Source of the DNA: Solirubrobacter ginsenosidimutans
Lineage (GTDB): Bacteria; Actinomycetota; Thermoleophilia; Solirubrobacterales; Solirubrobacteraceae
Assembly: GCF_027587205.1 (NCBI RefSeq)
Contig: NZ_JAPDOD010000001.1
Coordinates: 186,001-250,000 of the forward strand
DNA length: 64,000 bases
Reading direction: 5' to 3'
Shown here: piece by piece, positions 25,301 through 60,534 of the stretch
Layout: every line of letters begins with the position of its first letter
How positions within the stretch are numbered: position 1 is the first letter of the stretch
Translations under genes and position numbers: made by a program
The notes under the pieces: model-generated
The model's input: only the letters and a program-made list of their open reading frames with translations
What the model was told of the DNA's origin: nothing
Database searches by the model: none

Positions 25301-27212
25301 ACAGCTCCGTATAGGCGGCGCAGCGACCGTAGAAGTCGGCGCGCACGGCGACGACCACCAGCGCGGGCCGGCGCACGTCTCGCACCGAGGCCATGAGCGC
25401 GTCGACGAACGCCGCGCGCTCTGACTCCTCGCCGCAGATCGTGAACGCCTCCTCGAACTGGTCGACCGCCACGACCAGCCGGCCGTGACTCGGCGCCCGG
25501 GCAAGCGCCTGCTCGAGCGCGCGCAGCGGACGCTCCCCCGGCCGCAAAACGGCGAGCGTCCAGCGCTCGCTGCCGGGAATTACATCCGCCGCGAGCGCGG
25601 CGAGCAGACCGGCATGCAGCACCGAGGACTTCCCGCTGCCCGAAGGCCCGACGATCCCCAGGAACGGGGCGCCCGTCAACCGGGCGACCATCTCTGCCAC
25701 CAACCGCTCGCGCCCGAAGAAGAAGTCCGCATCGCCGGCCTCGAAGGACGCCAGCCCCTTGTAGGGGCAGACGGCTTCGACCGCACGCGACTCGGTTCGC
25801 TCCCTGGCGACCTGCAGCTTGACGATGCTTCCGACGAGGTCGTCCTCCGCGGCGCGCAGCCCGGACCGATCCCCGTTGATACGGCCCACCGAATCGGCGA
25901 GGCGACGTAGCTCCAGCATGCGCGCCCACTCCGACGCCACACCGTGCAGCGACCGCGGCAAGCCGCCGCTGGCGACCAGAAGGCGCTCGACCGGCACCGC
26001 AACCTTCGCGCCCGCATAGAGCCGGGCGAACGCGCGGGCACCGTCGGCGTTCAACGGAGCCAAGGCGAGCGTCCCGGCCGCCCGCAACGAGGGCACCACC
26101 TGCTCCGCGGTCGCCACCACGAGCACCGCCCCGGCGAATCGCTCGTCGAGCGGATCGAGGTCGCGCGCGACGTCGTCGAGCACCAGCAGGGTGGGTCGGG
26201 AAGCCATGCGAGCGGCGGCCAGCGCATGCGACGCGTCCGCCGAGCGGCGAGCGGACACGTACAGCACGGCTCCGCGGTCGCGCAGCACCTCTTGCGCGAG
26301 CTCGGCGACCAGACGTGTCTTGCCGATTCCGCACTCGCCCACGACAAGGACGCACCGGCCGTCCCCGGCGAGCGCGCGCTGCCAGTGCCCACGCAGCCAG
26401 TCCAGATCGGCCTCTCGGCCCAGGAGCGGTGTCGCCGTGTCGAGCTCGGGCGCCAATCGGGTCGCTTCGACCAGAAGTGGTGGCTCGAGCCGGGGATCCT
26501 GGCGGAGGATCGCCTCGTGCAGGTGGCGCAGCTCGGGGCCGGGCTCCACGCCGATCGCGTGCACGAGCGCCTGGCGAGCTTCGCGATAGGCCTCCAACGC
26601 CTCCGCTTGCCGGCCTGAGCGATACAGCGCGAGCATGTATTGCCCGCGCAGCCGCTCGCGCAACGGCTCATCGGCGATCAGCGACCGCAACTCGGGCAGG
26701 ACCTCGCAATGGCGGCGCGCGCCCAGGTCGGCGTCGATCGCCAGCTCGGTCGCCTGCAGTCGCAACTCCTCCAGCCGCCGGATCGCCGCGCTCGCGAACG
26801 GCTCATCAGCTACGTCGGCGAGCGGGCTGCCACGCCACAACGCGAGCGCCGCCCGTGCTTCCCCGTTCGGCGCCCCGCCGGCCTGCTCGGCGGCGTGAAC
26901 AAGCCGCTCGAACCGGACGGCGTCGACGCGATCGACCGCCAGCCGGAGCTCGTAGCCGCGACCGCGCGTGACGATCTCCGCCACGCTCCCGCGCAACAGC
27001 TTGCGCAACTGGGACACGTACAGCTGCACCATCTTGGGAGCCGAGGCCGGCGCGCGCTCGCCCCATAACCCCTCACACAGCCGATCGGCCGACACGGTCC
27101 GGTTGACCTGCAGCGAGAGCATTGCCAGCACGGCGCGCTGCTGGGGCGCCCCGAGGGCTACCGGGCGGCCGTCAAGGCTCGCCTCGACCGGCCCGAGGAG
27201 ACGGATGTCCAT
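22329..27212 (-). CDS. SARP/BTAD - ATPase - STAND NTPase - WD40 giant regulator
   Basis: A 1627-aa protein from ATG 27212. Domain order is as follows. An OmpR-type winged helix plus BTAD (about 1-245; LLGPVEASLDGRPVALGAPQ, VGVEPGPELRHLHEAIL-like end). A first P-loop ATPase (about 260-440; GECGIGKT). A second, nSTAND-type P-loop NTPase (about 487-880; CPYKGLASFEAGDADFFFGR, GPSGSGKSS). One transmembrane helix (about 893-915; VLLAGVGALLALAVAAGAIA). Then WD40 repeats to the end, with many 'FSPDGRxLA' strands. Such proteins couple a DNA-binding head to ligand or protein sensing; here the helix would put the propeller on the other side of the membrane. The gene at 55882 is a full-length paralogue. 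It is divergent from a PD40 gene 123 bp away. Confidence 0.9.
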   Translation of the reverse strand: MDIRLLGPVEASLDGRPVALGAPQQRAVLAMLSLQVNRTVSADRLCEGLWGERAPASAPKMVQLYVSQLRKLLRGSVAEIVTRGRGYELRLAVDRVDAVRFERLVHAAEQAGGAPNGEARAALALWRGSPLADVADEPFASAAIRRLEELRLQATELAIDADLGARRHCEVLPELRSLIADEPLRERLRGQYMLALYRSGRQAEALEAYREARQALVHAIGVEPGPELRHLHEAILRQDPRLEPPLLVEATRLAPELDTATPLLGREADLDWLRGHWQRALAGDGRCVLVVGECGIGKTRLVAELAQEVLRDRGAVLYVSARRSADASHALAAARMASRPTLLVLDDVARDLDPLDERFAGAVLVVATAEQVVPSLRAAGTLALAPLNADGARAFARLYAGAKVAVPVERLLVASGGLPRSLHGVASEWARMLELRRLADSVGRINGDRSGLRAAEDDLVGSIVKLQVARERTESRAVEAVCPYKGLASFEAGDADFFFGRERLVAEMVARLTGAPFLGIVGPSGSGKSSVLHAGLLAALAADVIPGSERWTLAVLRPGERPLRALEQALARAPSHGRLVVAVDQFEEAFTICGEESERAAFVDALMASVRDVRRPALVVVAVRADFYGRCAAYTELSRLLGAGHVLVGPMRREELRRAIELPARRAGVPVESELVDALVADVQGQPGALPLVSSALLELWQRRGGGSLRLSDYEKAGGVCGAVARLAEQAYERLDLAGRRLARRVLLRLAGDGEGDAVVRRRARLTEFEGTDVAYVLDVLAEARLISISEGEVEVAHEALLREWPRLRTWLQEDADGRRLHLHLMNAARGWQSADRDPAELYRGARLASTLDWTAKHEPELDGLERAFVAASRAEAEREGERQRRANRRLRVLLAGVGALLALAVAAGAIAVAQRGQARDATVVADAQRVGADAVGREHLDHALLLARAGVELHDSAATRGNLLSVLARNSAVIGVLPGDGWPLSSVVVSPDGRLAAVGGILGAVSVFDVASRRSIGAPYRVADGDVGPLRFSPDGATLAAPITLPSGPVVDLIDPRTRTRRLRIALDPSRYGAASVAFLPDGRDLLIEQILNPPSIEAAVVLRRFDATTGAAEGRALRLPQAAFGLTTTADRRRLVMTSAPRNETVMIDTERLRPLRRWPVGDATGSVSPDGRLFALGSPRGAVRVLDLRSGQVRRFTGGKAAAVSRLAFTPDRRTLVTSHDDGQLLVWDVARAELRERLQGHDRGHIWGLQISADGRTLYSAGEDERALVWDLAGDRRLIRRFDAGPPFLVDPGDRSPRGIAVSPDGRTVAVTQTDGTVDLIDAQTLRPRRSVHALDGFAAAVAFSPDGRLLAIAGRRGQVTLRDARSLQPVGDLSGLSTTSQALAFSPDGSLLAAAEIGTPTDDTAADDGTVRVWDVRRRALTRVRFAVTSASVAFSPDGTLLAAAAREGPTEVRDARTGRLVARLVTPDGGRSLAFSPHGTRLATGHMDGTAQLWSTRSWKPVGPRFEGHGVQRFVSMQFTPDGRVLVTGGADGTVGLHDVSTGNPIGPPLTVEPDTFAAAVLAPDGSRLFAVSDRHGGLRLDISPQTWKRHACLVASRDLTSREWQDALPGQPHRTICRPA

Positions 27213-41168: not shown

Positions 41169-42578
41169 ATGGCTCCGAGCTTCGTCGCGTGTGATCGCGA
41201 GCAGTCGTTTCTGATGCCACCCGACGCGCGCGAGTGGCTGCCGGAGGATCACTTCGCGTGGTTCGTGCTCGGCGCCGTCGACGCGATGGACCTGGAGGCG
41301 ATCTACGGCGCCTATCGAGCTGACGGACGCAGCCGGCCGGCGTTTGATCCGGCGATGATGGTCGCGTTGATCCTGTACGCGTACGCGCGGGGCAATCGGT
41401 CCTCGCGGGCGATCGAGCGCTCGTGCGTGGAAGACATCGCGTATCGAGTGATCGCCGCCCAGGCCAAGCCCGATCACGCGACGATCGCGCGCTTTATCGA
41501 GCGCCATCAGGACGCGTTGGCCGGCGTGTTTGGCGAGGTCCTGGGGCTGTGCGCGAGCGCCGGGTTGGTCGGGCTGAACGTCGTCGCGGTGGATGGCAGC
41601 AAGGTCTCGGCCAACGCGAGCCGCGAAGTGAATGTCGACTATGAGCGCCTCGCCCGCGAGGTCATCGAGGACGCCCGCGCGGTCGATGCCGAGGAGGACG
41701 AGCGTTTCGGTGATCGCCGCGGCGACGAGCTGCCGCCGGAGGTCTCCACCCACAACGGGCGCCAGCAATGGTTCAAAGAGGCCAAGCGCCGGCTGGATGA
41801 CCAGCGCGCCGCCGAGGGCGCGCCGATCCCGCGCGAACGGGCCAAACGCGTCCGCGAGGCCAAGCGGCGCATGGATGAGCAGCTCTGGACCGAGGTTCGT
41901 GCCAACGAGGCCTACCTGCGCTTTCGCGCCGGCGGCAAGGACCACCGCGGCTGGCGGCTCGGACCGGCCACCACGCCGAAGCCCTATGCGCCACCTGAGG
42001 TCCCGCCGGCCGTGGTCAACACCACCGATCTGGATTCGCGGATGGTCAAGGGCCAGCACGGCTTTCTGCAGGGCTACAACGCCCAGGCCGCGGCCTACGA
42101 GCACCAGATCGTCATCGCGGCCGAGATCGAAGTCGTCTCACCCGACTTCGGGCACCTCGAACGGACCATCGGCGCGGCCCGTCGCGAACTCGCGGCGGCC
42201 GGTGTCACTGAGCTCCCGCGCGTGGTTGTCGCGGACTCGGGCTACTGGCATACGCAGCAGATCCAACGGCTCGCCGGCGACGGCATTCCGGTCCTGATCC
42301 GGCCCGAGTCCGGGCTGCGAACCACGCCCAGGCCGGGCTGGCGCGGCGGGATCTATGACTTCATGCGCCGCGTGCTGGCGACCGAGCACGGCAAGGCGCT
42401 CTACCGGCAACGACAACACATCATCGAGTCCGTGTTCGGCAACACCAAACACAACCGCGGCATCACCCGCTTCCACCGCCGCGGCAGAGCCGCCGTCAGA
42501 ACCGAATGGCGCCTCTGCATGGCGACCCACAACCTGCTCAAGCTCCACAACCACAACCTCGCCACCGCGGCGGCCTGA
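41169..42578 (+). CDS. IS1182-family DDE transposase
   Basis: A 469-aa protein from ATG 41169. N-terminal 'FVACDREQSFLMPPDAREWL' and 'FDPAMMVALILYAYARGNRS' are typical IS1182 (DUF772) blocks, followed by HATIARFIERHQDALAG. Catalytic acids: Asp in VVAVDGSKVSANAS, Asp in RVVVADSGYWHTQQ and Glu in HIIESVFGNTKHNRG (RNase H-like DDE fold). Between them lies a Lys/Arg-rich helical insertion (FKEAKRRLDDQRAAEGAPIP). No frameshift, so this copy is probably active, or recently so. The frameshifted copy at 17941-19351 and the deleted copy at 49795-50226 are its relatives. Confidence 0.95.
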   Translation: MAPSFVACDREQSFLMPPDAREWLPEDHFAWFVLGAVDAMDLEAIYGAYRADGRSRPAFDPAMMVALILYAYARGNRSSRAIERSCVEDIAYRVIAAQAKPDHATIARFIERHQDALAGVFGEVLGLCASAGLVGLNVVAVDGSKVSANASREVNVDYERLAREVIEDARAVDAEEDERFGDRRGDELPPEVSTHNGRQQWFKEAKRRLDDQRAAEGAPIPRERAKRVREAKRRMDEQLWTEVRANEAYLRFRAGGKDHRGWRLGPATTPKPYAPPEVPPAVVNTTDLDSRMVKGQHGFLQGYNAQAAAYEHQIVIAAEIEVVSPDFGHLERTIGAARRELAAAGVTELPRVVVADSGYWHTQQIQRLAGDGIPVLIRPESGLRTTPRPGWRGGIYDFMRRVLATEHGKALYRQRQHIIESVFGNTKHNRGITRFHRRGRAAVRTEWRLCMATHNLLKLHNHNLATAAA

Positions 42579-42907: not shown

Positions 42908-45900
42908 TCAGAGCGCAGCTACGAGCAATCGCTCACACTCGCGGGCGTAGCGCGTTGCGCCCACCCGCGTGAAGAACTCCAGCGCGTGGTGAAGCTGGGC
43001 CGGTTCGCCGCTGCGCAGGCGCGCGAGCGCGGCGGAGCGGGCAGCGCCGTGGGTGTCGTAGATCGCCGCCGCGCGCGGGGCATCGCCGGCCATCAGCGCA
43101 CGGGCGGCCTGAAAGGATGGCCACTCCGCAGCGGCGAGCGCGCGCTGGGCGGGCTTCGTGCGGTCGATCATCGGCGCCGCCCAGGCAACGTCGCCCCCCG
43201 CGTGACCGATGTAACGGAATGCGGCCGGGTCGAGGCTGAGGAGCTCGTCGAAGCGCTCGCGAGCCTTGTCAAGCCGGCCGGTGTCGGCGTGGACGTGCAC
43301 CGCGACGGCGAGCGCGTAGTACAGGTTTTGGGGGTCCTTGGCCACGCGCGCGTGTTCGACCGCGAATGCCTGATCGGCGATTGCGCCGTCGAGGTCGCCG
43401 AGGCCGAGCCGCAGCATGGCCCGGACGAACGCGACCGCGATCGCGTTGTAGAAGACGCCGAGGCGCTCGGACTCCGCAAGGAACTCATCGGCGGCGGGGA
43501 CGGCGAGCTCCCAATCTCCGGCTTCCGCCCACTGCTCGATCATGTTCGTGCGAACGACGCGCCATTGCGAGGGGCTGCCCAAACGCTCTACGGCGTGCAG
43601 TGCTTCATGGTTGGCCTCCAGCGCCTCACGCGCCCGGCCGTGAAAGTTCAGCCCCGAGCAGAGATTAGTAGCGCCCCGGGCGACCGCCCACAGCCAGTTG
43701 CCCGCGCGCGCGGCCTCCAGGCCCTCCGTGAGCTGCTCGAAGCCCTCGTCGTCAGCCTGCCCGACGCGGGCCGTCCCGGCGCTGATGAGCACGTGCGCCC
43801 GCAGCTCGTCCAGCCCGAGCGCCCCGGTGATGTCGAGTGCGGCGCGCACGCGCTCCGCGTCATAGCGCCCCGCGAACATGTCAAAGCGGACGAATTCGGC
43901 GAGCACCCGTGCCTTTACCGGGCTCGCGGGGGCGTCGACCACGAGCTCCCACGCCAGGTTGAGGTGATCCCAACAGCGGTCGTGCTCGCCGGTCAACCAC
44001 CAGACGTCGGCCCGCAGCCGCGCCAGATCGGCCACGAGCACCTCCTCCCCGGAGGCGCGCAGCGCCTCGATGGCCTGATCGAGGGCCTCGCCCCGGTCCT
44101 CCTCACCCCGCTCCGACGCGGCCACAGCGCGCCGGTGGATCAGCTCGGCGCGCTCGTGCTGCGCGTCCTGCGGCCACAGCGCGAGGGCGTCGCTGTAGAA
44201 GCGCTCGGCCGCGGCGAACGCGTAGAGGACCCGGGCGCGGTCGCCGGCGTACGCGAGCGCGGCGCGGGCTTCGGGAACGACGGGGCCGAGGTCGCGTTCG
44301 GCGGAGCGCGACAGGGCCAGCGCCTGCTGGTAGTGGTGGCCGAGCAACTCGGCGTGGTCGTCCGGTCGTCCCAGCGCCTCGATCCAGCCGGCGGCGCCGA
44401 GGTGCTTGACCATGCGTTGGGCGCGCGGGATCTGCTCGTAGGCCACTTCGCGCAGCAGCGCGTGCACGAAGCCGTACTCCGGCTGGCCGGCGATGCTCGA
44501 GCGCCGGTTGCGGCGCACGAGCTGTCGGCGCTCGAGCGCACGCAGCCGCTCCTCGGCGTCTTGCGCCGTGACGGCCGACGGCCAGAACACTTGGCCGATC
44601 ACCGCGGCGTCCTGGAGCAGGTGCCGGTCCGATGCGGGAAGCGCGTCCAGGCGCGCCGCGATGATCGCCCGCACCGTGTCCGGCAGGTCGGGCGTGCCGC
44701 CGTCGCTCTCGCCCAGCGCCTCGACGTACTGCTCGGCGTAGAGCGGGTTGCCGCCGGAGCGCTCGATCAATTCGCCGGTCTGCCGCGGCGTGAGCGATCC
44801 GCGAGCGAGCGCGGCGACGAGCGCGGCCGTGTCGTCCGCCGATAGAGGCCCGAGCGTGAGCGTGGTGCTGTCGGGCTTTCCGCCGCCCCACTGGGGCCGG
44901 CGCTCGAGCAGTTCGGGGCGGGCGGTGGTGACGAGCAGCATCGGCGCCTGCGTGGCCCAGTCGACGAGATGGTCGATGAAGTCCAGCAGGCCGTCGTCGG
45001 CCCAGTGGACGTCCTCGAAGACGAGGATCAGCGTGCGCTCCTCTGCCAGCGCCTCGAGCAGCGTCCGCCAGGCGGCGAACTCCTGCGCCCGCCGGTCGCC
45101 CGCGGGTACGGCATCCGTGGGGCCCGCGCCCACCAGTCCGGTGGCGTGCCGGAGGACCCACTCGGCGGCGCTGGCGTCGCTCACCGTGTCGGCCACGAGC
45201 GCGGCGAGCTTCCCACCGGCGTCGGCAGTGGAGTCGCTCTCCAACACGCCGGCGAGGCGCTTGACCATCTCGCCCAGCGCCCAGAAGCTCAGGCCCGGGC
45301 CGTAGGGGAGCGAGCGGCCCGTCAGCACGCGTGCGCCCTGCGGATCCAGCTCGGCGAGCAGGCGCGACTTGCCGATGCCCGGCGGCCCGACGACGGTGAA
45401 CAGCGCGGGCGCGCGCGTCTCGCACACGCGCTCCAGCCCGGCGGCGAGCAGCGCGAGTTCCGCCCGGCGGCCGGCCAGCGGGGCGCGCGCCGGCGGCCCT
45501 TCGCGGATCCCGGTGCGCGCGGCCAGCGCCTCCCAGCCGTTCTCGACGAGGCGGTACTCGATCGGCTGGCGGGTCGCTTTCCGGGTCCGGTCGTCCACGA
45601 CCACGCTGCCGGCCGAGACGGCGGAGAGCAGCCACGTGGCCGGCCCCGCGAGGTCGCCGGGGTCGCTGCCCTCACCCACCAGGGCCTCGGTCGTGGCCAC
45701 CGCGACCCGCACGTGCACGCTCGGCTCATCGCGCAACTCGTCGCGGATCGCCAGCGCCGCACGAACGGCTCGCTCCGCGTCGTCCTCGTGCGCGGCAGGC
45801 ACGCCAAACGCCGCGGGCAGGGCCCCAGCGCTCAGCGGCCCGGACATCCCACCGAAGCGCTCGACGTGGACGCGCACTCGCTCGCCTACGGCGCCGATGA

Positions 45901-46828
45901 GCCTGCCGGCGTCCTCCGGATCCGCTTCGGCATGCACGGCGGCCAGCAGTGCGATGACCGTGCGGCGGTCGAGCCACGCTGGCGCGCTCGACGCCGCGTC
46001 CAGCGCGTCTGGCGGCGTTGCTTCGCTTGCGGCCGCGATGTCTGGCGCCGCCGACTTCGGCCGCGGCGGCGGGTCCAGCGAGACGTGGTGGGCCAGGATG
46101 GCCTGCTGTAGGCGCTGGAGCTCCTCGCCGGGGTCTAGTCCGAGCTCGTCGACGAGCGTGTCGCGGGCGCGCTGGTACTCGGCCAGCGCGTCGGCCTGCC
46201 GCCCGCATCGATACAGCGCGAGCATGAGCTGGCCGCGCAACCTCTCGCGGTAGGGGTGCTCGGCGATCAGCGCCGCCAGCTCGCCGGGCAGATCGGCGTG
46301 GCGGCCGAGCGCGAGGTCGGCGTCGATGCGCGCCTCCACCGTGCTCGAACGCAGATCTTCCAGCCGAGCCGCCTCCGGCCGGGCGGACGGCTCATCGGCC
46401 AGCTCGCCGAGCGCCGGCCCGCGCCACAGGCTCAACGCGGCGACGAGCTCGCGCCGTGCCGTCTCGGGATCGCCGGCCCGCAACGCCGCGGCACCGGCGG
46501 CGGCGCGTTGCTCGAATTCGCTTACATCGCACGCTTCGGCGGCGATCTCCAGCACGTAGCCGCCGGGCACCGTGCGCAACGGCAGCTCGGAGCCGAGCGC
46601 CTGACGGAGCGCGCGGATGTGCATCTGCAGCGCCGTCCGCGCCGTCGCAGGCGGCCGGCCGACCCACAGCTCCTCGGCCAGCCGGTCGCTCGTCATCAGC
46701 TCGCGCGCATGGAGCACCAGCAGCGCCAGCAGCGCACGGCGACGCGCGCCGGCGAGCGGGACCGGCTCGTCGCCGCGCGTCACCGCAAGCGGCCCCAACA
46801 GACCGAACCGCAGCCCGTCACCGGACAC
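42908..46828 (-). CDS. SARP/BTAD - degenerate adenylate cyclase - ATPase - TPR regulator
   Basis: A 1306-aa protein from ATG 46828. Winged helix plus BTAD (about 1-250; LRFGLLGPLAVTRGDEPVPL, YRCGRQADALAEYQRARDTL). Next comes a class III nucleotide cyclase homology domain (about 285-430; IALLAAVHAEADPEDAGRLI, FGVPAAHEDDAERAVRAALA). Its first catalytic Asp ('FxDLxGFT') and the 'GD' metal site are missing, so it is dead and presumably sensory. An AAA_16-type ATPase follows (about 455-720; VGPPGIGKS, FEDVHWADDGLLDFI). The rest is helical, TPR-like (about 850-1300). The gene is divergent from the micropeptide/TPR cluster, with a SARP-box-like element between them, and is the best candidate for its regulator. 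Confidence 0.9.
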   Translation of the reverse strand: MSGDGLRFGLLGPLAVTRGDEPVPLAGARRRALLALLVLHARELMTSDRLAEELWVGRPPATARTALQMHIRALRQALGSELPLRTVPGGYVLEIAAEACDVSEFEQRAAAGAAALRAGDPETARRELVAALSLWRGPALGELADEPSARPEAARLEDLRSSTVEARIDADLALGRHADLPGELAALIAEHPYRERLRGQLMLALYRCGRQADALAEYQRARDTLVDELGLDPGEELQRLQQAILAHHVSLDPPPRPKSAAPDIAAASEATPPDALDAASSAPAWLDRRTVIALLAAVHAEADPEDAGRLIGAVGERVRVHVERFGGMSGPLSAGALPAAFGVPAAHEDDAERAVRAALAIRDELRDEPSVHVRVAVATTEALVGEGSDPGDLAGPATWLLSAVSAGSVVVDDRTRKATRQPIEYRLVENGWEALAARTGIREGPPARAPLAGRRAELALLAAGLERVCETRAPALFTVVGPPGIGKSRLLAELDPQGARVLTGRSLPYGPGLSFWALGEMVKRLAGVLESDSTADAGGKLAALVADTVSDASAAEWVLRHATGLVGAGPTDAVPAGDRRAQEFAAWRTLLEALAEERTLILVFEDVHWADDGLLDFIDHLVDWATQAPMLLVTTARPELLERRPQWGGGKPDSTTLTLGPLSADDTAALVAALARGSLTPRQTGELIERSGGNPLYAEQYVEALGESDGGTPDLPDTVRAIIAARLDALPASDRHLLQDAAVIGQVFWPSAVTAQDAEERLRALERRQLVRRNRRSSIAGQPEYGFVHALLREVAYEQIPRAQRMVKHLGAAGWIEALGRPDDHAELLGHHYQQALALSRSAERDLGPVVPEARAALAYAGDRARVLYAFAAAERFYSDALALWPQDAQHERAELIHRRAVAASERGEEDRGEALDQAIEALRASGEEVLVADLARLRADVWWLTGEHDRCWDHLNLAWELVVDAPASPVKARVLAEFVRFDMFAGRYDAERVRAALDITGALGLDELRAHVLISAGTARVGQADDEGFEQLTEGLEAARAGNWLWAVARGATNLCSGLNFHGRAREALEANHEALHAVERLGSPSQWRVVRTNMIEQWAEAGDWELAVPAADEFLAESERLGVFYNAIAVAFVRAMLRLGLGDLDGAIADQAFAVEHARVAKDPQNLYYALAVAVHVHADTGRLDKARERFDELLSLDPAAFRYIGHAGGDVAWAAPMIDRTKPAQRALAAAEWPSFQAARALMAGDAPRAAAIYDTHGAARSAALARLRSGEPAQLHHALEFFTRVGATRYARECERLLVAAL

Positions 46829-47098: not shown

Positions 47099-47395
47099 AT
47101 GCGCCCCACCCGCACCATCACCGTCCCGCTGGCCGCCGTCCTGGCCGCCGCGGCGCTGGCCTCGCCCGCGACCGCGCAGCCGATCGACTTTGCCGTTCAC
47201 CTGAGCGACCCCGCCACGCGCACGTCGGCGAACCTCAGCTCAGCGGACCCCCAGCACGCGCCCTGCACTTCCGGCCTTGCCGAGACGACGTCGCGGCCGA
47301 GGCAGAACCCGCGGTCCATGCTCGAGTCCGTTACTCCCCGCGCGCAAGGCGACCGCGTCATGCGTGAGCTGCGCGAGACCACGGTCGCCCCCTAG
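47099..47395 (+). CDS. Small secreted protein, first gene of the micropeptide cluster
   Basis: A 98-aa protein from ATG 47099, preceded by AAGGAG 8 nt upstream. Signal peptide at about residues 1-26 (RTITVPLAAVLAAAALASPA). The mature part (QPIDFAVHLSDPATRTSANL and on) is polar, with one Cys and many Ser/Arg, and shows no known fold. It lies just after the SARP-box-like repeats and 66 bp before the first micropeptide gene, so they probably share a transcript. It may be a precursor or processing partner; function unknown. Confidence 0.6.
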   Translation: MRPTRTITVPLAAVLAAAALASPATAQPIDFAVHLSDPATRTSANLSSADPQHAPCTSGLAETTSRPRQNPRSMLESVTPRAQGDRVMRELRETTVAP

Positions 47396-47461: not shown

Positions 47462-47584
47462 ATGCTCAAGCTCAAGCCCACGCTGTTCGCCATCGCGATC
47501 GCGGCGGCCACGCTCCTGCCCGCCGCGTCAGCCAGTGCGGGACTCGGTCCCAATCACAACGAGACGCTGCTCCTCGATGACTGA
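47462..47584 (+). CDS. Secreted micropeptide precursor 1
   Basis: A 40-aa ORF from ATG 47462. Signal peptide MLKLKPTLFAIAIAAATLLP ending ASASA, then the putative mature peptide GLGPNHNETLLLDD. Two further copies follow in tandem at 47603 and 47747 with the same signal and the same tail NH[N/S]ETLLLD[D/E]. Conservation of the exported tail while the residues before it vary (GLGP, GGTFP, GLVLG) suggests that the tail is the functional part. No modifying enzyme, ABC transporter or Cys is present, so an unmodified Sec-exported peptide is likely. Confidence 0.7.
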   Translation: MLKLKPTLFAIAIAAATLLPAASASAGLGPNHNETLLLDD

Positions 47585-47602
47585 ACCCTTTTGCAGGACG
47601 AC

Positions 47603-47728
47603 ATGCTCAAGCTCAAGCCCACGCTGTTCGCGATCGCCGTGACGGTCGCCACGCTCATCCCCGCCGCTTCCGCCAGCGCGGGGGGCACGTTCCCGAATCA
47701 CAGCGAGACGCTGCTCCTCGACGACTGA
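47603..47728 (+). CDS. Secreted micropeptide precursor 2
   Basis: A 41-aa ORF from ATG 47603. Signal peptide MLKLKPTLFAIAVTVATLIP, predicted cleavage after ASASA, mature GGTFPNHSETLLLDD. It is separated from precursor 1 by ACCCTTTTGCAGGACGAC, nearly identical to the spacer before precursor 3 (ACCCTTTTGGAGGACGAC), which carries the ribosome site. The unit arose by tandem duplication of about 140 bp. The stop codon and spacer positions are conserved, supporting selection at the protein level. Confidence 0.72.
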   Translation: MLKLKPTLFAIAVTVATLIPAASASAGGTFPNHSETLLLDD

Positions 47729-47746
47729 ACCCTTTTGGAGGACGAC

Positions 47747-47866
47747 ATGCTCAAGCCCACGCTGTTCGCGATCGCCGCGACGGTCGCCACGCTCATCCCC
47801 GCGGCCTCCGCCAGCGCGGGCCTGGTGCTGGGGAACCACAGTGAGACGCTGCTCCTCGACGAGTGA
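47747..47866 (+). CDS. Secreted micropeptide precursor 3
   Basis: A 39-aa ORF from ATG 47747 with GGAGG 8 nt upstream. The signal peptide lacks the duplicated LK (MLKPTLFAIAATVATLIPAA); cleavage after ASASA gives mature GLVLGNHSETLLLDE. Its last 26 nt overlap the GTG start of the TPR gene in another frame, so peptide and TPR protein are translationally linked, as in Gram-positive Rap-Phr cassettes where a TPR receptor is encoded with its signal peptide. Confidence 0.72.
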   Translation: MLKPTLFAIAATVATLIPAASASAGLVLGNHSETLLLDE

Positions 47867-48767
47867 TCCGAGCGAGGCGGACGATGTCGGCGCGGCGAGG
47901 TCGGCGAGGCTCCTCCAGAGTGCCGCGGCCCGTTGGGTCGTCCGCCACCAGCGCCTCGCCGCCAAGCACCGCCAAACCGGTGACCTCGACGGCGCCGAGC
48001 GCCACTACCGGCGCGCTCTGGCGCTCGCGGTCCGTGCGCTGCCCGCCGACCATCTCGCCACCGGGAGCGTCTGCAATGACCTCGGCGTCGTGCTCAAGTA
48101 CACGGGCGCCTTCCGTGAAGCCGCCGCGCTGTATGAACGCGCGTACGCGGTGCTCGCGCTGAGGCTAGGGCCTGAGCACCCCGAGGTCGCGACGGTGCTG
48201 CACAACATCGGCGGCCTCGCGCACGCCGCCGGGCGACCCGCCGACGGCGAACAAGCCGCTCGCCGAGCAGTCACGATCCGAGAGGCCAGTCTCGGCGCCG
48301 ACCATCCCGAGGCCGCCGCCGATCGCGCCGCACTGGCCGCCATCCTCGACGCGCTCGGACGCCACGACGAGGCGGCGGAACTGCTCGAGGCCGCTCTCGC
48401 GGTGTTCGAGCGAACGCTCGGGCCCGACCACCACGAGGTCGGGGTGACCCTTGCGAACCTCGGCGCGATCGACGCGCGCCGCGGCCGCCTGGACTCCGCC
48501 GCGATGCGCCTGCGCCGAGCCCTGGCGATCAAGGAGCACACGCTCGGCGACGACCACGTCGAGCTCGTACCCACGATCGGCACCCTCGGCGTCGTCTGCC
48601 GCCGCGCCGGCGACCCGGACGCCGCAAGACAACACACCGAGCGCGCCCTGCGTCTGCTCGAAACCCGCGGGCTCGACGGCCATCCACAGGCCACAACGCT
48701 CCGGGCAAACCTCGCGCGACTCGACGACACGCAGCGCCCAGGCGATCCAGACCGCCGGTCACCCTGA
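47841..48767 (+). CDS. TPR (kinesin light chain-like) protein overlapping the micropeptide genes
   Basis: A 308-aa protein; GTG 47841 is the only usable start (GGGGA upstream), 26 nt inside precursor 3. Five or so TPR_10/12-type repeats, each with 'LGPxHPEVAxxLxNLG' turns: LGPEHPEVATVLHNIGGLAH, LGADHPEAAADRAALAAILD, LGPDHHEVGVTLANLGAIDA, LGDDHVELVPTIGTLGVVCR. No HTH, kinase or phosphatase domain, so it would act by protein or peptide binding, possibly on the divergent SARP regulator. A 111-aa paralogue precedes the SARP at 55882. A peptide-receptor role is an inference. Confidence 0.82.
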   Translation: MRRCSSTSDPSEADDVGAARSARLLQSAAARWVVRHQRLAAKHRQTGDLDGAERHYRRALALAVRALPADHLATGSVCNDLGVVLKYTGAFREAAALYERAYAVLALRLGPEHPEVATVLHNIGGLAHAAGRPADGEQAARRAVTIREASLGADHPEAAADRAALAAILDALGRHDEAAELLEAALAVFERTLGPDHHEVGVTLANLGAIDARRGRLDSAAMRLRRALAIKEHTLGDDHVELVPTIGTLGVVCRRAGDPDAARQHTERALRLLETRGLDGHPQATTLRANLARLDDTQRPGDPDRRSP

Positions 48768-49000: not shown

Positions 49001-49777
49001 GTGCGTGGACTCGAGGAGATACGCGATCTGGTTCGCCCGCCGGCCACTCCCGCCGGCGCGCCGTTCGACTGGTCCGCGGCCGAGAGCAGGCTCGGGACGG
49101 CGCTACCTGAGGACTACAAGGCCTTCTGCGACACGTACGGCCACGGCAGCTTCTCCAACGGCTGGTCATGGTCACCGCTCACTCCGTTCGCGCAAGATCG
49201 GGGAGACGACGTCACCTCGACGTTTTGGCGCGACATGGCCATCGACTACGAGCATGGGATGCCGATGTTCCCGGACCCCGGCGGCCTGTTGCCGTTCGCG
49301 ACCGGTGAGCTCAAGTACCTGCTCTGGTGGCGTGTGGCGGGACCGCCGAACGAGTGGACGACCTTGCTTGAGGATGACGGTGGCACCTGGCACCGCTACC
49401 AGCTGACGGCCACGGAACTGCTCGCGGTCGCGCTGCGCGACGAGCTCTTCCGGCCGAGCGAAGTGATCCGCGAAGTGACGTTCTTCAGCCGGCCCGCGCG
49501 GCCGAGGGAGCGACACCAGCCGTTCGTGATCAGCGGCTACGGGATGGCTCTCGGCGTCTATCACGTCGACCTCGACCTCGCTGGTGCTCTGGGCGGGGCC
49601 CGAGCGCAACGGCTCGACGAGCTCCTCGCCGCGCTCGATCCGTCGATCTGTAACCGACTCGCAGGCTCGGTGGCGATGCGGAGCAAAGAGGTGCTCTACG
49701 TCCGCGTCGATGAGGACATCACCCCCGTCCGCGAGGCCGTCCAGGCGTGGGCGGATCGCGTCAGCGGCTGGGTCTGA
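49001..49777 (+). CDS. SMI1/KNR4 (SUKH)-like protein
   Basis: A 258-aa protein with a GTG start. Residues about 22-60 (DWSAAESRLGTALPEDYKAF, CDTYGHGSFSNGWSW) are the SUKH signature, with the conserved 'LPxDYxxFxxxYG' helix and following Gly turn. A second alpha/beta half follows (YGMALGVYHVDLDLAGALGG, KEVLYVRVDEDITPVREAV). Bacterial SUKH proteins are usually immunity proteins against contact-dependent or polymorphic toxins; no toxin is seen next to it. A deleted IS1182 fragment begins 18 bp after the stop. Confidence 0.75.
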   Translation: MRGLEEIRDLVRPPATPAGAPFDWSAAESRLGTALPEDYKAFCDTYGHGSFSNGWSWSPLTPFAQDRGDDVTSTFWRDMAIDYEHGMPMFPDPGGLLPFATGELKYLLWWRVAGPPNEWTTLLEDDGGTWHRYQLTATELLAVALRDELFRPSEVIREVTFFSRPARPRERHQPFVISGYGMALGVYHVDLDLAGALGGARAQRLDELLAALDPSICNRLAGSVAMRSKEVLYVRVDEDITPVREAVQAWADRVSGWV

Positions 49778-49794: not shown

Positions 49795-50226
49795 TGCCGT
49801 GCTCGGTCGCCAACACGCGGCGCATGAAGTCATAGATCCCGCCGCGCCAGCCCGGCCTGGGGGCGGTTCGCAGCCCGGACTCGGGCCTGATCAGGACCGA
49901 AATGCCGTCGCCGGTGAGACGCTGGATCTGCTGGGTGTGTCAGTAGCCCGAGTCCGCGACAACCACGCGCGGGAGCGCAGTGACACCGGCCGCCGTGCGT
50001 TCGCTGCGGGCCGCGCCGATGGTCCGTTCGAGGGTGTCGAAGTCGGGTGAGACGACTACGCGATGTCCTCACGCACGCGCGCTCGATCGCCCGCGACGAC
50101 CGATTACCCCGCGGGTACGCGTACAGGATCAACGCGACCATCATCGCCGGATCAAACGCCGGCCGGCTGCGTCCGTCAGCTCGATAGGCGCCGTAGAACG
50201 CCTCCAAGTCCATCGCCTCAACGGCA
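49795..50226 (-). pseudogene. IS1182-type transposase fragment with internal deletion
   Basis: On the minus strand, N-terminal sequence (MDLEAFYGAYRADGRSRPAF, then SSRAIERACV) joins at about 50056 directly to C-terminal sequence (VVSPDF-like, then ERTIGAARSERTAAGVTALP, VVVADSGY). About 215 codons of the middle are gone relative to the intact copy. The Trp of SGYWH is a stop codon (TGA), and both terminal inverted repeats are missing. This is an old, dead relic. Confidence 0.85.
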
Positions 50227-50262
50227 CTCTGCCGGGCCAGGACGCGGAGCCGCCGTTGGGCC

Positions 50263-50496
50263 TCAGCTCGTGGCAAGCAAGACGATCCCTAGCGCCATGA
50301 GCGCCAGGCCGGATGCGACACCTCCAATGCGACGACCACGTGTCATCGGGAGCCGGTCTTCGCGATACCCGAACCGCGCAAAGCGAGCTGGCGACCGGTC
50401 GTTCCAGCGATCGTCGTAGTCGGAGGCGCGCAGCGCGTGCCACGCGCCGACGCTCCCGAGCAAGAACAGCAGTATTCCGGTCGCGGCAACGATCAC
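50263..50496 (-). CDS. Small membrane protein, two helices
   Basis: A 77-aa protein from the start at 50496. An N-terminal helix (residues 1-20, MIVAATGILLFLLGSVGAWH) and a C-terminal helix (about 56-76, GGVASGLALMALGIVLLATS) flank a charged loop (RASDYDDRWNDRSPARFARF). Typical of small hypothetical actinobacterial membrane proteins. It lies next to the IS relic; no family recognised. Confidence 0.6.
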   Translation of the reverse strand: MIVAATGILLFLLGSVGAWHALRASDYDDRWNDRSPARFARFGYREDRLPMTRGRRIGGVASGLALMALGIVLLATS

Positions 50497-55881: not shown

Positions 55882-58800
55882 ATGCACGTCAATCTCCTTG
55901 GGCCGGTCGAGGCCGTCAGCGATGACGGCGCGATCGGCCTCGGCGGCGTCAAGCAGCGTGCCGTGCTCGCGATGCTGGCGCTGCAGACCGGATCGACGGT
56001 CAGCGCGGACCGGCTGATCGACGGCCTCTGGGGCGACCACCCGCCGGCCTCGGCGCTCAAGCTCGTCCAGCTGTACGTCTCCCATCTGCGTAAGGCGTTC
56101 GGCGAAGAGGACGTGATCGCCACGCACGGCCGCGGCTACGAGCTGCGTCTCGCCCGCCAGGACGTGGACGCCGGACGGTTCGAACGGCTGCTCGCGCAGG
56201 GCGCCGCCCGCGAGGCGCTGCGCCTGTGGCGCGGCTCACCGCTCGCCGACGTGGCGGGCGAGCCGTTCGCGGCACCCGAGATCCGCAGGCTCCAAGAGCT
56301 CCACACCGCGGCACTCGAGGTCGCGATCGACCAGGACCTCGACGCCGGCCGCCATCGCGAGGTGCTGCCGGAGATCGATGGACTGCTCGCGGCGGAGCCG
56401 CTGCGAGAGCCGCTCCACGCCCGCCGCATGCTCGCCCTCTATCGCTGCGGCCGCCAGGCCGACGCGCTCGAGGCCTACCGCGAGGTGCGGCGCGCGCTGA
56501 TCGAGGAGATCGGGGTGGAGCCCGGGCCGGCGCTGCGCGCGCTCCACGAGTCCATCCTGCGCCAGGACCCCGCCCTGGACCCGCCGGTTGACGGCTCCCG
56601 CCGCACTCCGCTGTTCGGCCGCGAGCAGGAGCTCGAGCGTCTGCGGGCGCTCTGGCGCCGGGTGCGCGACGGCTCCGCCGCGACCGCGCTGATCAGCGGG
56701 GAGCCGGGGATCGGCAAGACGCGGCTGGCGCTGGCCCTGGCCGACGACGTCCGTCGCGAGGGCGGCGACGTCAGCTGGGGGGACCTCCAGGCGCTGGCAC
56801 CGGGACGGCCCAGCCTGCTCGTGCTCGATGGCGCCGGCGTGGCGCCGCAGCGCGTTCCCTCGGTGCTGGTGCTCATGACCATCGTCGAGCCGGACGGGAT
56901 CGTGGCCGACGAGCGCGTCGCGCTCGGCGCGCTGGGGCCCGACGAGGCCGCGCGGCTCGCCCGCTTCGACGCCGGAGACGATGAGCCGGTCGGCCGCATC
57001 GTGGACGCGAGCCGGTGCGTGCCCGGCCTGATCCGCGAGGCGGCGCGGGACTGGGCCCGCGCGCAGGCGATGGCGCGCGTCGCGGACGCCGCCGCCCGTA
57101 CCTCGGCCGACCGCGCGCAGTTGCAACTCGCCGAGGGCGATCTGACGCTGCGGGTCGTGGAGTTTCAAGGGATCCGCGAACCCGCCTCCGCGACACCCGG
57201 CGCGTGCCCGTACAAGGGCCTCGAGACCTTCGACGTCGAGGACGCCGCCGTGTTCTTCGGTCGCGAGCGGCTGGTGGCCGAGCTGGTGGCGCGCTTGCCC
57301 GGCGCGCGTTTGCTGGGCATCGTCGGACCATCGGGGAGCGGTAAGTCGTCGGCGATGCGCGCCGGGCTGCTCGCCGCGATCGGCGCGGGCGTGCTGCCGG
57401 GCAGCGAGACCTGGGCGCAAGCGGTGATCCGCCCCGGCGAGCGCCCGACGCTCCCGGAGCCCCCGGCGGGTTGGGCGGTGCTGGCCGTCGACCAGTTCGA
57501 GGAGCTCTTCACCGTCTGCCGCGACGAGGGCGAGCGCGCGGCGTTCGTCGCCGCCCTCCTCGACCGCGCGCGCCACGACACGATCGTCATCGTCGCCGTG
57601 CGGGCCGACTTCTACGGCGCGTGCGCCCGCTATCCCGAGCTCTCCCGCCTGCTCGGCGCCAACCACGTGCTGGTGGGCCCGATGCAGCGCCACGAGCTGC
57701 GGCGAGCGGTCGAGCTGCCCGCCGGCCACGCCGGCGTCGCGATCGAGCCCGGGCTCGCGGACAACCTGGTCGCCGACGTCGAGCAGGAGCCGGGTGCGCT
57801 GCCGCTGCTGTCGACGGCGTTGTTCGCGCTCTGGGACGAGGGGCTGACGCTGGACGCGTACGAGCGCACGGGCGGCGTCCGCGGCGCGGTGGCGCGCCTG
57901 GCCGAGGCCGCCTACGCGCGGCTCGACGACGGCGGTCGCGCCGAGGCGCGCCGCATCCTGCTGCGGCTCGCCGGTGACGGCGACGTGCGCACGCGCGTGC
58001 CGCTCGCGGAGTTGGGCGACGGCGCGGTCCTGTCCGCACTCGCGCGCGATCGCCTCGTCACCGTCGGAGAAGGCGAGGCCGAGGTCGCCCACGAGGCGCT
58101 GCTGCGTGAGTGGCCCCGGCTGGTGAGCTGGCTGGAGGAGGACGCCGAGGGACGGCGGCTGCATCGGCACCTCACCCAGGCCGCGCGCGACTGGAACGGA
58201 GACCCGAGCGAGCTCTACCGCGGGCCGCGGCTCGCGGCGGCGCTGGAGTGGGCCGACGCCCACGGATCCGACCTCACCGCCCGCGAGCGGAGCTTTCTCG
58301 CCGCCGGGCGCGCCGCCGGCGAGCAGGCGCAGCGCCGCCTGCGGCTCGTGCTCGGCGGCGTGGCCACGCTCCTGGTGCTCGCGGTCATCGCCGGCGCGAT
58401 CGCGATCAATCAGCGGGGCCACGCCCGCGAGGCGGCGGTGGCCGCCGACGCACAGCGCGTCGGCGCCCAGGCGCTCACCGCGGGCGACCTCGACCGCGAA
58501 CTGCTGCTCGCTCGCCAGGGCGTGGCGCTGGACGACTCGCTGCAGACACGCGGGAACCTGCTCGCCGCCCTGCTCAAGAGCCCGGCGGCGATCGGCGTGT
58601 TGCGCGGCGACGGGGACGGGCTGATCAGCCTCGATCTCAGTCCCGACGAGCGCACGCTGGCGTTCATCGACATCGACGGCACGGTGACCTTCGTCGACCG
58701 GCGCACGCACCGGCGGGCGGCGCCGCCGGCCGCCGTCGGCGGCCAGGAACCCTGCCTCATCGTCGCGCAGGTCAGGCTCGACCACCTGCGCTTCAGCCCC

Positions 58801-60534
58801 GACGGCTCACGGCTCGCCGTCGGCGGGTGCTCTCCGGTCATCCTCGATGCTCGCACCCATCGCGTGCTCGCTCGGCTGCGGGTCCCCGACGAATTCATCT
58901 ACACGCTGCGCTTCTCGCCCGACGGGCGCACGCTGTTCGCTGCCGTCGGGCGCCCGCTGAAGGGCGACACGGCGCTCGTGCGCTTCGACGCGCGCAGCGG
59001 CCGACCGCTCGGCCCGGAGCGGTCCGCCGGCGAGGGCCTCGGGTCGTTCATGCTCACGCGTGACGGACGGCGGGTCGTGACGAGCTTCGAGGGCGCGACG
59101 GTGATCCGCGACGCGGGGACCCTGCGCCCGCTGCGAAGCCTGCCGGTCGGCGCAGAGACGGCGGCCCTGAGCCCGGACGGTCACACCGTGCTGCTCGGAG
59201 GCAGCGACGGCTCCGTGCGCTTCCTCGACCTCGTCAGCGGCAAGGTGCGCACCGGCTCCGGACGCCATGAAGGCGCAGTGGTGAAGGCCACGTTCAACGC
59301 CGACGGCGCCTCCGCGATCACGGCCGGCCAGGACGACCGCGTGATCGTCTGGGACGTCAAGCGGGCGGAGGCCGGCGAGACGCTGGAAGGCCACGGCGGC
59401 CAGGTCACCGGCCTGGCGATCAGCCACGACAACCAGACGCTCTACAGCTCCGCCCTCGACGGCAAGGTCCTGATCTGGGATCTCGCGGGCACCCGCCGGC
59501 TCGGCCGCCCGTTCGGCCTCGGCACCGGCGGCGCGACGCTGCGCTACGCGCTGAGCCCCGACGGCCGCGTCCTCGCCGCCGGACACGCCGACGGCACCGT
59601 CACCCTGATCGACGCCCGGACGCTGACACCGCTCTCCGGTCCCGTCCGTGTGCTCCGCGACGGACCGGTGGGCGGCATGGGGTTCGTTCCGCATAGCCGG
59701 CTGCTCGTCGTCGGAGACAGCACAGGCTTCGTCACCCTCCTCGACAGCGAGCGCCGGCAAGTGATCTGGCGCCGTCGCGCCGGCGACGCCCCGATCTTCA
59801 CGCCCGGCTTCAGCGCCGACGGACGCCTCTTGGCCACGGCCAGCGACGACTTCAACGACCGCGAGGACGGCGTCGTGCGCCTGTGGGCGCTGCCCTCAGG
59901 CCGCGAGATCGGTGGCCCGCTGAAGTACCCGTCGGTCGAGGACGTGTCGCTCAGCCCCGACGGGCGCACGCTGGCCATTACCGCGGGGATCGATCGCAAG
60001 GACCTCGACAAGGGGGATGTCGAGATCGTCGACGCGGGCACGCACCGGCGCCGCGCCTCGCTCCCGGAGACCGAGACCGTGACGGATCTCGCACGCTTCA
60101 CCCCCGACGGGCGCTTCATCGTGGCTGGAAGCTGGAAAGGCTGGGCAAGGTTGTGGTCCACCAAGACCTTCAAGCCGGCCACCCGCCCGTTCGTCGGGCA
60201 CGCCGGACGCGTGGAATGGGAGTCGATCAGCCCCGACGGCCGCACGCTCGCCACCGGCGGCCCGGAGGGCGCCATCCGGCTCTGGGACCTGCCCACCCAA
60301 CGGCCGCTCGGCGCCCCGCTCCCCGCGCTGCCCAACCACGAGGCGGTTCCGCAATTCACGCCCGACGGCAACTACCTGTTCGCCATCACCGACGCCGGAA
60401 GGGCCTACCGCTGGGACATGCGCGGCGCTTCATGGGCGCAACATGCCTGTGACGTCGCCGGCCGCACGCTCACCCGGACCGAGTGGAACGCCGCACTGCC
60501 CGACCGCGCTTACGCACCGGCCTGCGCCCACTGA
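55882..60534 (+). CDS. SARP/BTAD - ATPase - STAND NTPase - WD40 giant regulator
   Basis: A 1550-aa protein from ATG 55882. The same architecture as the 1627-aa protein at 22329: winged helix plus BTAD (about 1-235; LLGPVEAVSDDGAIGLGGVK, LWGDHPPASALKLVQLYVSH), first ATPase (about 245-430; SGEPGIGKT, residues near 271), nSTAND NTPase (about 440-800; CPYKGLETFDVEDAAVFFGR, GPSGSGKSS near 482), one transmembrane helix (about 820-843; LVLGGVATLLVLAVIAGAIA), then WD40 blades with 'FSPDGRTLFAAVG'-type strands to the end (about 906-1530). Preceded 4 bp upstream by a TPR gene, which its paralogue lacks. Likely a membrane-linked transcriptional sensor. Confidence 0.9.
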   Translation: MHVNLLGPVEAVSDDGAIGLGGVKQRAVLAMLALQTGSTVSADRLIDGLWGDHPPASALKLVQLYVSHLRKAFGEEDVIATHGRGYELRLARQDVDAGRFERLLAQGAAREALRLWRGSPLADVAGEPFAAPEIRRLQELHTAALEVAIDQDLDAGRHREVLPEIDGLLAAEPLREPLHARRMLALYRCGRQADALEAYREVRRALIEEIGVEPGPALRALHESILRQDPALDPPVDGSRRTPLFGREQELERLRALWRRVRDGSAATALISGEPGIGKTRLALALADDVRREGGDVSWGDLQALAPGRPSLLVLDGAGVAPQRVPSVLVLMTIVEPDGIVADERVALGALGPDEAARLARFDAGDDEPVGRIVDASRCVPGLIREAARDWARAQAMARVADAAARTSADRAQLQLAEGDLTLRVVEFQGIREPASATPGACPYKGLETFDVEDAAVFFGRERLVAELVARLPGARLLGIVGPSGSGKSSAMRAGLLAAIGAGVLPGSETWAQAVIRPGERPTLPEPPAGWAVLAVDQFEELFTVCRDEGERAAFVAALLDRARHDTIVIVAVRADFYGACARYPELSRLLGANHVLVGPMQRHELRRAVELPAGHAGVAIEPGLADNLVADVEQEPGALPLLSTALFALWDEGLTLDAYERTGGVRGAVARLAEAAYARLDDGGRAEARRILLRLAGDGDVRTRVPLAELGDGAVLSALARDRLVTVGEGEAEVAHEALLREWPRLVSWLEEDAEGRRLHRHLTQAARDWNGDPSELYRGPRLAAALEWADAHGSDLTARERSFLAAGRAAGEQAQRRLRLVLGGVATLLVLAVIAGAIAINQRGHAREAAVAADAQRVGAQALTAGDLDRELLLARQGVALDDSLQTRGNLLAALLKSPAAIGVLRGDGDGLISLDLSPDERTLAFIDIDGTVTFVDRRTHRRAAPPAAVGGQEPCLIVAQVRLDHLRFSPDGSRLAVGGCSPVILDARTHRVLARLRVPDEFIYTLRFSPDGRTLFAAVGRPLKGDTALVRFDARSGRPLGPERSAGEGLGSFMLTRDGRRVVTSFEGATVIRDAGTLRPLRSLPVGAETAALSPDGHTVLLGGSDGSVRFLDLVSGKVRTGSGRHEGAVVKATFNADGASAITAGQDDRVIVWDVKRAEAGETLEGHGGQVTGLAISHDNQTLYSSALDGKVLIWDLAGTRRLGRPFGLGTGGATLRYALSPDGRVLAAGHADGTVTLIDARTLTPLSGPVRVLRDGPVGGMGFVPHSRLLVVGDSTGFVTLLDSERRQVIWRRRAGDAPIFTPGFSADGRLLATASDDFNDREDGVVRLWALPSGREIGGPLKYPSVEDVSLSPDGRTLAITAGIDRKDLDKGDVEIVDAGTHRRRASLPETETVTDLARFTPDGRFIVAGSWKGWARLWSTKTFKPATRPFVGHAGRVEWESISPDGRTLATGGPEGAIRLWDLPTQRPLGAPLPALPNHEAVPQFTPDGNYLFAITDAGRAYRWDMRGASWAQHACDVAGRTLTRTEWNAALPDRAYAPACAH

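What the first reader, a model, noticed from the sequence alone, without database searches (positions are those of the whole stretch)
47462..48767. Three tandem secreted micropeptides leading into a TPR gene: a possible new peptide-signalling cassette
The sequence shows three 39-41-aa ORFs in tandem, each with a ribosome site. The signal peptide is shared (MLK..PTLFAIA...ASASA) and so is the exported tail NH[N/S]ETLLLD[D/E], while the residues between vary. Spacers are nearly identical. The third ORF overlaps the GTG of a 308-aa kinesin-light-chain-type TPR protein. In Bacillus, Rap/Phr and related RRNPP systems pair secreted peptides with TPR receptors; no actinobacterial equivalent of this form is known to me. 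A SARP regulator with its own TPR-like region is encoded divergently. The peptides lack Cys, modification enzymes and a dedicated exporter. A signal or ligand role is inference.
Basis: partly seen in the sequence, partly recalled or inferred. Interest (0 to 1): 0.85.

Follow-up and report, generated by a model that had tools for sequence, protein, structure and literature searches.

The report
Secreted NHNETLLLD micropeptides beside TPR protein
A high-GC bacterium carries three tiny, probably exported peptides in a row, members of a family of such peptides with a nearly fixed tail, right before a gene for a peptide-binding type of protein, so it could be a new form of bacterial peptide signalling, although no function has been shown.

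Summary
Three ATG-started ORFs (40, 41, 39 aa) lie in tandem at 47462-47866; the last overlaps the 308-aa TPR ORF by 26 nt. They belong to a protein family: 118 of 118 listed relatives from the profile search (120 of 486 listed, two the window's own) carry NH[NSD][ED][TSPA]LL behind a signal-like sequence. One hit of the first search lacks the tail (P0026). Copies cluster: 44 of 121 hits share a contig length with another, 3.2 expected. Pairing with this TPR family is supported but modest: 4 contig-length matches against 0.59 expected (P 0.002), and one relative with tail and TPR part in one frame. The TPR protein resembles kinesin light chain by sequence and, among others, Rap-pheromone structures by fold. 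The pair meets five published RRNPP criteria (signal peptide by pattern only), but kinship to RRNPP receptors was not found and the tail is nearly fixed. A peptide-plus-TPR-receptor role is my best reading (0.4); binding, re-import and effect are untested. Two window peptides had no passing Pfam or NCBIfam match; the tail string had no hit in the paper library.

The parts
47099..47395 (+). ORF for a 98-aa protein with a signal-peptide-like start, 66 nt upstream of the array; no Pfam or NCBIfam match; membership of the unit not established
47462..47584 (+). micropeptide 1, 40 aa; predicted mature part GLGPNHNETLLLDD (coded at 47540-47581)
   Evidence: family
47603..47728 (+). micropeptide 2, 41 aa; predicted mature part GGTFPNHSETLLLDD (coded at 47681-47725)
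   Evidence: family
47747..47866 (+). micropeptide 3, 39 aa; predicted mature part GLVLGNHSETLLLDE (coded at 47819-47863)
   Evidence: family
47585..47602 (+). 18-nt spacer with ribosome site, 17 of 18 bases as in the second spacer
47729..47746 (+). 18-nt spacer with ribosome site
47841..48767 (+). TPR protein, 308 aa from GTG; kinesin-light-chain-type repeats; candidate peptide receptor; overlaps micropeptide 3 by 26 nt in the +1 frame
42908..46828 (-). SARP-type regulator, 1306 aa (Trans_reg_C, BTAD, AAA_16); neighbour, possible target, link not shown

Best explanation
The locus makes three Sec-type propeptides that signal peptidase would trim to 14-15-residue peptides ending in NH[N/S]ETLLLD[D/E], and a cytosolic kinesin-light-chain-type TPR protein that reads such a peptide in its groove, after re-import, and so changes what it binds. 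It would work like a Rap/Phr-type RRNPP pair: no DNA-binding domain was found in the receptor, which would act through a partner, perhaps a SARP-type regulator. Inferred: cleavage, export, re-import, binding, partner, outcome.
Confidence: 0.4

Rival explanations
1. The micropeptides are exported peptides with a job outside the cell (envelope component, antagonism, nutrient or metal capture) and the TPR gene next to them is an accessory or incidental neighbour.
Against: TPR linkage exceeds chance (P 0.002) and covers micropeptides with different signal sequences (P0011, P0211, P0040); the overlap of frames suggests translational coupling.
Confidence: 0.3
2. The TPR protein binds the precursor in the cytosol (export pilot, chaperone or quality control); the peptide never signals.
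For: Solved TPR relatives hold short motifs (entry titles of KLC and APPBP2 complexes); the two frames overlap.
Against: Short Sec substrates are not known to need a dedicated TPR partner (recalled, not tested).
Confidence: 0.12
3. The micropeptide ORFs are translational leaders that set the expression of the TPR gene.
For: 26-nt overlap of ORF 3 with the TPR ORF and near-identical 18-nt spacers.
Against: Amino-acid-level conservation of signal and tail in 118 listed relatives and dN/dS of 0.44 or less; RNA folds no better than shuffles (z +2.24); no Rfam match at gathering cut-offs.
Confidence: 0.08
4. The last micropeptide and the TPR protein are made as one exported protein by frameshifting or fusion.
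For: P0040 and P0033 read a signal-like start and the TPR part as one frame; in the window the TPR frame is +1 to ORF 3.
Against: By my reading, 11 of 18 aligned TPR relatives have a called start shortly before the conserved part and no signal-like stretch; P0040 appears to have another frame disturbance in its middle and its joint looks like a one-base change from the usual tail; no DNA was available for either.
Confidence: 0.05

Closest known systems
RRNPP peptide signalling (Rap/Phr, NprR/NprX, PlcR/PapR, AimR/AimP) of Bacillota and their phages
   Same: small Sec-type propeptide, TPR receptor of 250-500 aa, adjacent or overlapping genes (criteria from PMC10075063, passages); the TPR model aligns with Rap and NprR structures over most of its length. 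Several pheromones inside one propeptide are known there (PMC11343458, abstract and outline seen)
   Different: receptor sequence is of kinesin-light-chain type; copies are separate tandem genes; near-fixed tail with a varying head; 70.9% GC and SARP-type regulators point away from Bacillota, not proven; binding unproven
Kinesin light chain TPR domains (and BtubC, a bacterial KLC-like protein)
   Same: closest solved relatives by sequence and in Foldseek; bind short tryptophan-acidic and Y-acidic peptides (entry titles; start of an abstract in a search listing)
   Different: no motor or tubulin partner seen here; the tail has no tryptophan or tyrosine
FxSxx-COOH system (TPR protein with small peptides)
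   Same: best NCBIfam match of the TPR protein; pairing of a TPR protein with peptides that share a C-terminal motif (the system's make-up is recalled)
   Different: 105.7 bits against a cut-off of 300; tail is not FxSxx; no radical SAM enzyme in the Pfam families shown for 25 window proteins
AfsR/SARP regulators with a C-terminal TPR sensor
   Same: the TPR profile matches AfsR chains (1.1e-10); a SARP-type gene lies nearby
   Different: here the TPR protein stands alone; no DNA-binding or NTPase domain matched

Membership tests
RRNPP | propeptide of 10-100 aa | tested here: met
   39-41 aa; criterion from PMC10075063
RRNPP | Sec signal peptide on the propeptide | tested here: met
   by pattern only: hydrophobic core, A-x-A end, and K or R before the last 18 residues of the signal part in 119 of 121, 11 of the 121 rows miscut by the script; SignalP not available
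RRNPP | receptor of 250-500 aa with TPR repeats | tested here: met
   308 aa from GTG, start unproven; TPR_12 9.2e-50
RRNPP | genes adjacent (-60 to 400 bp) | tested here: met
   26-nt overlap
RRNPP | sequence kinship of the receptor with known RRNPP receptors | tested here: inconclusive
   none among the 60 shown of 93 PDB sequence matches at 1e-5; fold similarity only
RRNPP | mature peptide re-imported and bound by the receptor | not testable with these tools
   no whole genome held; no complex modelling offered
FxSxx-COOH system | TPR protein passes NF040586 | tested here: not met
   105.7 bits, cut-off 300
FxSxx-COOH system | peptide ends in FxSxx | tested here: not met
   tails end LLLDD or LLLDE
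FxSxx-COOH system | radical SAM maturase nearby (recalled feature) | tested here: inconclusive
   none in the families shown for 25 window proteins; the tables of two proteins were cut at 25 families and not every ORF was scanned

The most novel reading that the evidence does not exclude
A peptide-signalling family outside Bacillota, in a high-GC actinobacterial-type lineage for which no confirmed relative was found among GTDB species genomes: tandem arrays of exported propeptides with a public, nearly fixed NHNETLLLD tail and a variable head, read by stand-alone kinesin-light-chain-type TPR receptors that could act on SARP-type regulators.
Probability: 0.3. Interest if true: 0.85.

Novelty: new variant of a known kind. 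Interest (0 to 1): 0.7.

Why it matters
Signals in Actinomycetota are typically small molecules made by enzymes (PMC10075063, passage). A family of presumably exported 14-15-mers with a near-fixed tail, in clusters and linked to peptide-binding-type TPR proteins, would be a genetically encoded peptide language in that kind of bacterium, and gives ready-made synthetic peptides to test. Even if it is not signalling, more than a hundred uncharacterised micropeptides with one shared tail call for a function.

Tried and rejected
Chance ORFs: rejected by 118 of 118 listed relatives with the same tail in an open frame. RNA leader or structured element: z +2.24 and no Rfam match at gathering cut-offs. 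Phage or plasmid origin: no exact match of the tail pattern in viral contigs, none in phages, only a signal-part match at E 2 in plasmids; L001 matched only residues 7-27 and was read as chance after looking at its DNA. The TPR protein itself has matches in 33 plasmid records, all under 60% identity. Relatives in GTDB species genomes: 98 pattern stretches for the micropeptides, none confirmed; 17 for the TPR family, none confirmed. In my imitation of that confirmation on artificial DNA 67 to 90 of 118 members passed, so the negative tells for near relatives but is not complete; the tool's own settings are not known to me. Defence-system library: only a general TPR model rang, 34.1 bits. Tail docking in P0040: no ordered tail. 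Promoter scan: none found, one terminator-like site on the minus strand, 0.6 expected. Literature: the string NHNETLL had no match; searches on RRNPP or RNPP with Actinobacteria or Actinomycetota, on peptide pheromones with TPR and Streptomyces, on AfsR with TPR and peptide, on Solirubrobacter and on Thermoleophilia showed no described case in the listings and passages I saw.

Dropped before counts: P0026 (29 aa, no tail) and the window's own P0001 and P0012 from the 118; P0066 and P0120 (no contig given) from the 120 listed TPR relatives. The 121 is the 118 plus P0001, P0012 and P0026; the 121 is the 118 plus the window's three peptides. The 92 distinct joining stretches of 118 rest on a cut after the last A-x-A. 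In one search the script failed to cut 11 of 121 rows; 3 of these fall in the 27 within-array pairs, and by eye they differ from their partners, so 0 of 27 pairs share the stretch.

Full report
What is there. Three ATG-started ORFs of 40, 41 and 39 aa stand in tandem at 47462-47584, 47603-47728 and 47747-47866, with two 18-nt spacers that differ at one base. The third overlaps a 308-aa TPR ORF (47841-48767, GTG) by 26 nt in the +1 frame. Upstream, 66 nt away, is an ORF for a 98-aa protein with a signal-like start (47099-47395); further upstream, on the other strand, a 1306-aa SARP-type regulator with Trans_reg_C, BTAD and AAA_16. Downstream is a SUKH-domain protein (49001-49777).

The micropeptides are a real family. 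A search with micropeptide 2 gave 26 proteins including two of the window's own; a profile search gave 486 at E up to 10, of which 120 are listed. The 118 listed ones outside the window all carry NH[NSD][ED][TSPA]LL, most often as NHNETLLLDA (30), and 92 distinct stretches join the last A-x-A to it. P0026, a 29-aa hit of the first search, has the signal part but no tail and is not counted. The list is ranked by similarity, so the constancy is that of the best-scoring part of the family; the other 366 were not seen. With the window's three (121 in all), tail positions 1, 2, 6 and 7 never vary, while the joining stretch follows G-hydrophobic-x-L-x, L at its fourth place in 64 of 75 five-residue stretches. 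Codon comparison of the window copies gives dN/dS between 0.19 and 0.44, on few sites. Neither of the two window peptides scanned with Pfam has a match over its cut-off, nor have micropeptide 2 and P0191 in NCBIfam.

Clusters and linkage. I used equal contig length as a proxy for sharing a contig; the contigs themselves could not be fetched. Of 121 hits 44 share a length with another (21 groups, one of them the window), against a mean of 3.2 and a maximum of 14 in 2000 jittered sets; pairs on contigs of 545 and 546 nt would place copies side by side. In 27 within-group pairs none shares its joining stretch (three pairs judged by eye). Against 118 TPR relatives, 4 matches occur (21226, 2791, 1012, 4649) where 0.59 are expected, P 0.002; the 4649 match involves a more distant TPR protein and is the weakest. 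P0040 joins a signal-like start and GMNLGNHNETLL to a TPR protein of this family in one frame. Since similar micropeptides such as P0191 end NHNETLLLDT, I read it as a one-base change next to a TPR gene that follows at once; this is inferred from protein alone. The other 117 of 121 micropeptides have no length match with a listed TPR relative, on capped lists, so pairing is supported but not shown to be general.

How it most likely works. Exported peptide, trimmed by signal peptidase to 14-15 residues, re-imported and read by the TPR protein, in which no DNA-binding domain was found and which would act through a partner. The pair meets the five criteria of RRNPP_detector (PMC10075063, passages; signal peptide by pattern), a method shown there on genomes of Firmicutes and viruses. 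The near-fixed tail argues for a public rather than strain-specific signal, or for another extracellular role. The model of P0040 does not order the tail. I put the signalling reading at 0.4 and a non-signalling exported role at 0.3.

Where it occurs. No relative was confirmed in GTDB species genomes; none in phages or, for the tail pattern, viral contigs; only chance-level matches and in plasmids. My imitation of the confirmation step passed 67 to 90 of 118 members. A hint at lineage is a TPR relative labelled Solirubrobacterales (P0050; another, more distant one is labelled Polyangia). With 70.9% GC and SARP-type regulators I take the host to be actinobacterial; this is inference, as no genome was held.

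Noticed in passing
22329-27212 (-) and 55882-60534 (+): Two giant regulators of 1627 and 1550 aa that join a BTAD (SARP-type) part to an nSTAND1 NTPase and WD40 repeats.
   Followed up: no
41169-42578 (+), 49830-50276 (-), 17941-18810 (-): Transposase gene (DUF772 with DDE domains); the second stretch repeats its peptide patches and the third shares a short similar stretch, so they are probably remnants of the same kind of element.
   Followed up: partly
49001-49777 (+): SUKH-domain (SMI1/KNR4) protein just downstream of the TPR gene.
   Followed up: no
P0033 and P0040 (protein search hits): TPR proteins with a signal-like start in the same frame; either frame disturbances in the assemblies or real fusions.
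   Followed up: partly
47747-47866: Micropeptide 3 is not among the database proteins returned, although 2 and (with an earlier start) 1 are, so family counts are likely too low where gene callers skip such ORFs.
   Followed up: partly
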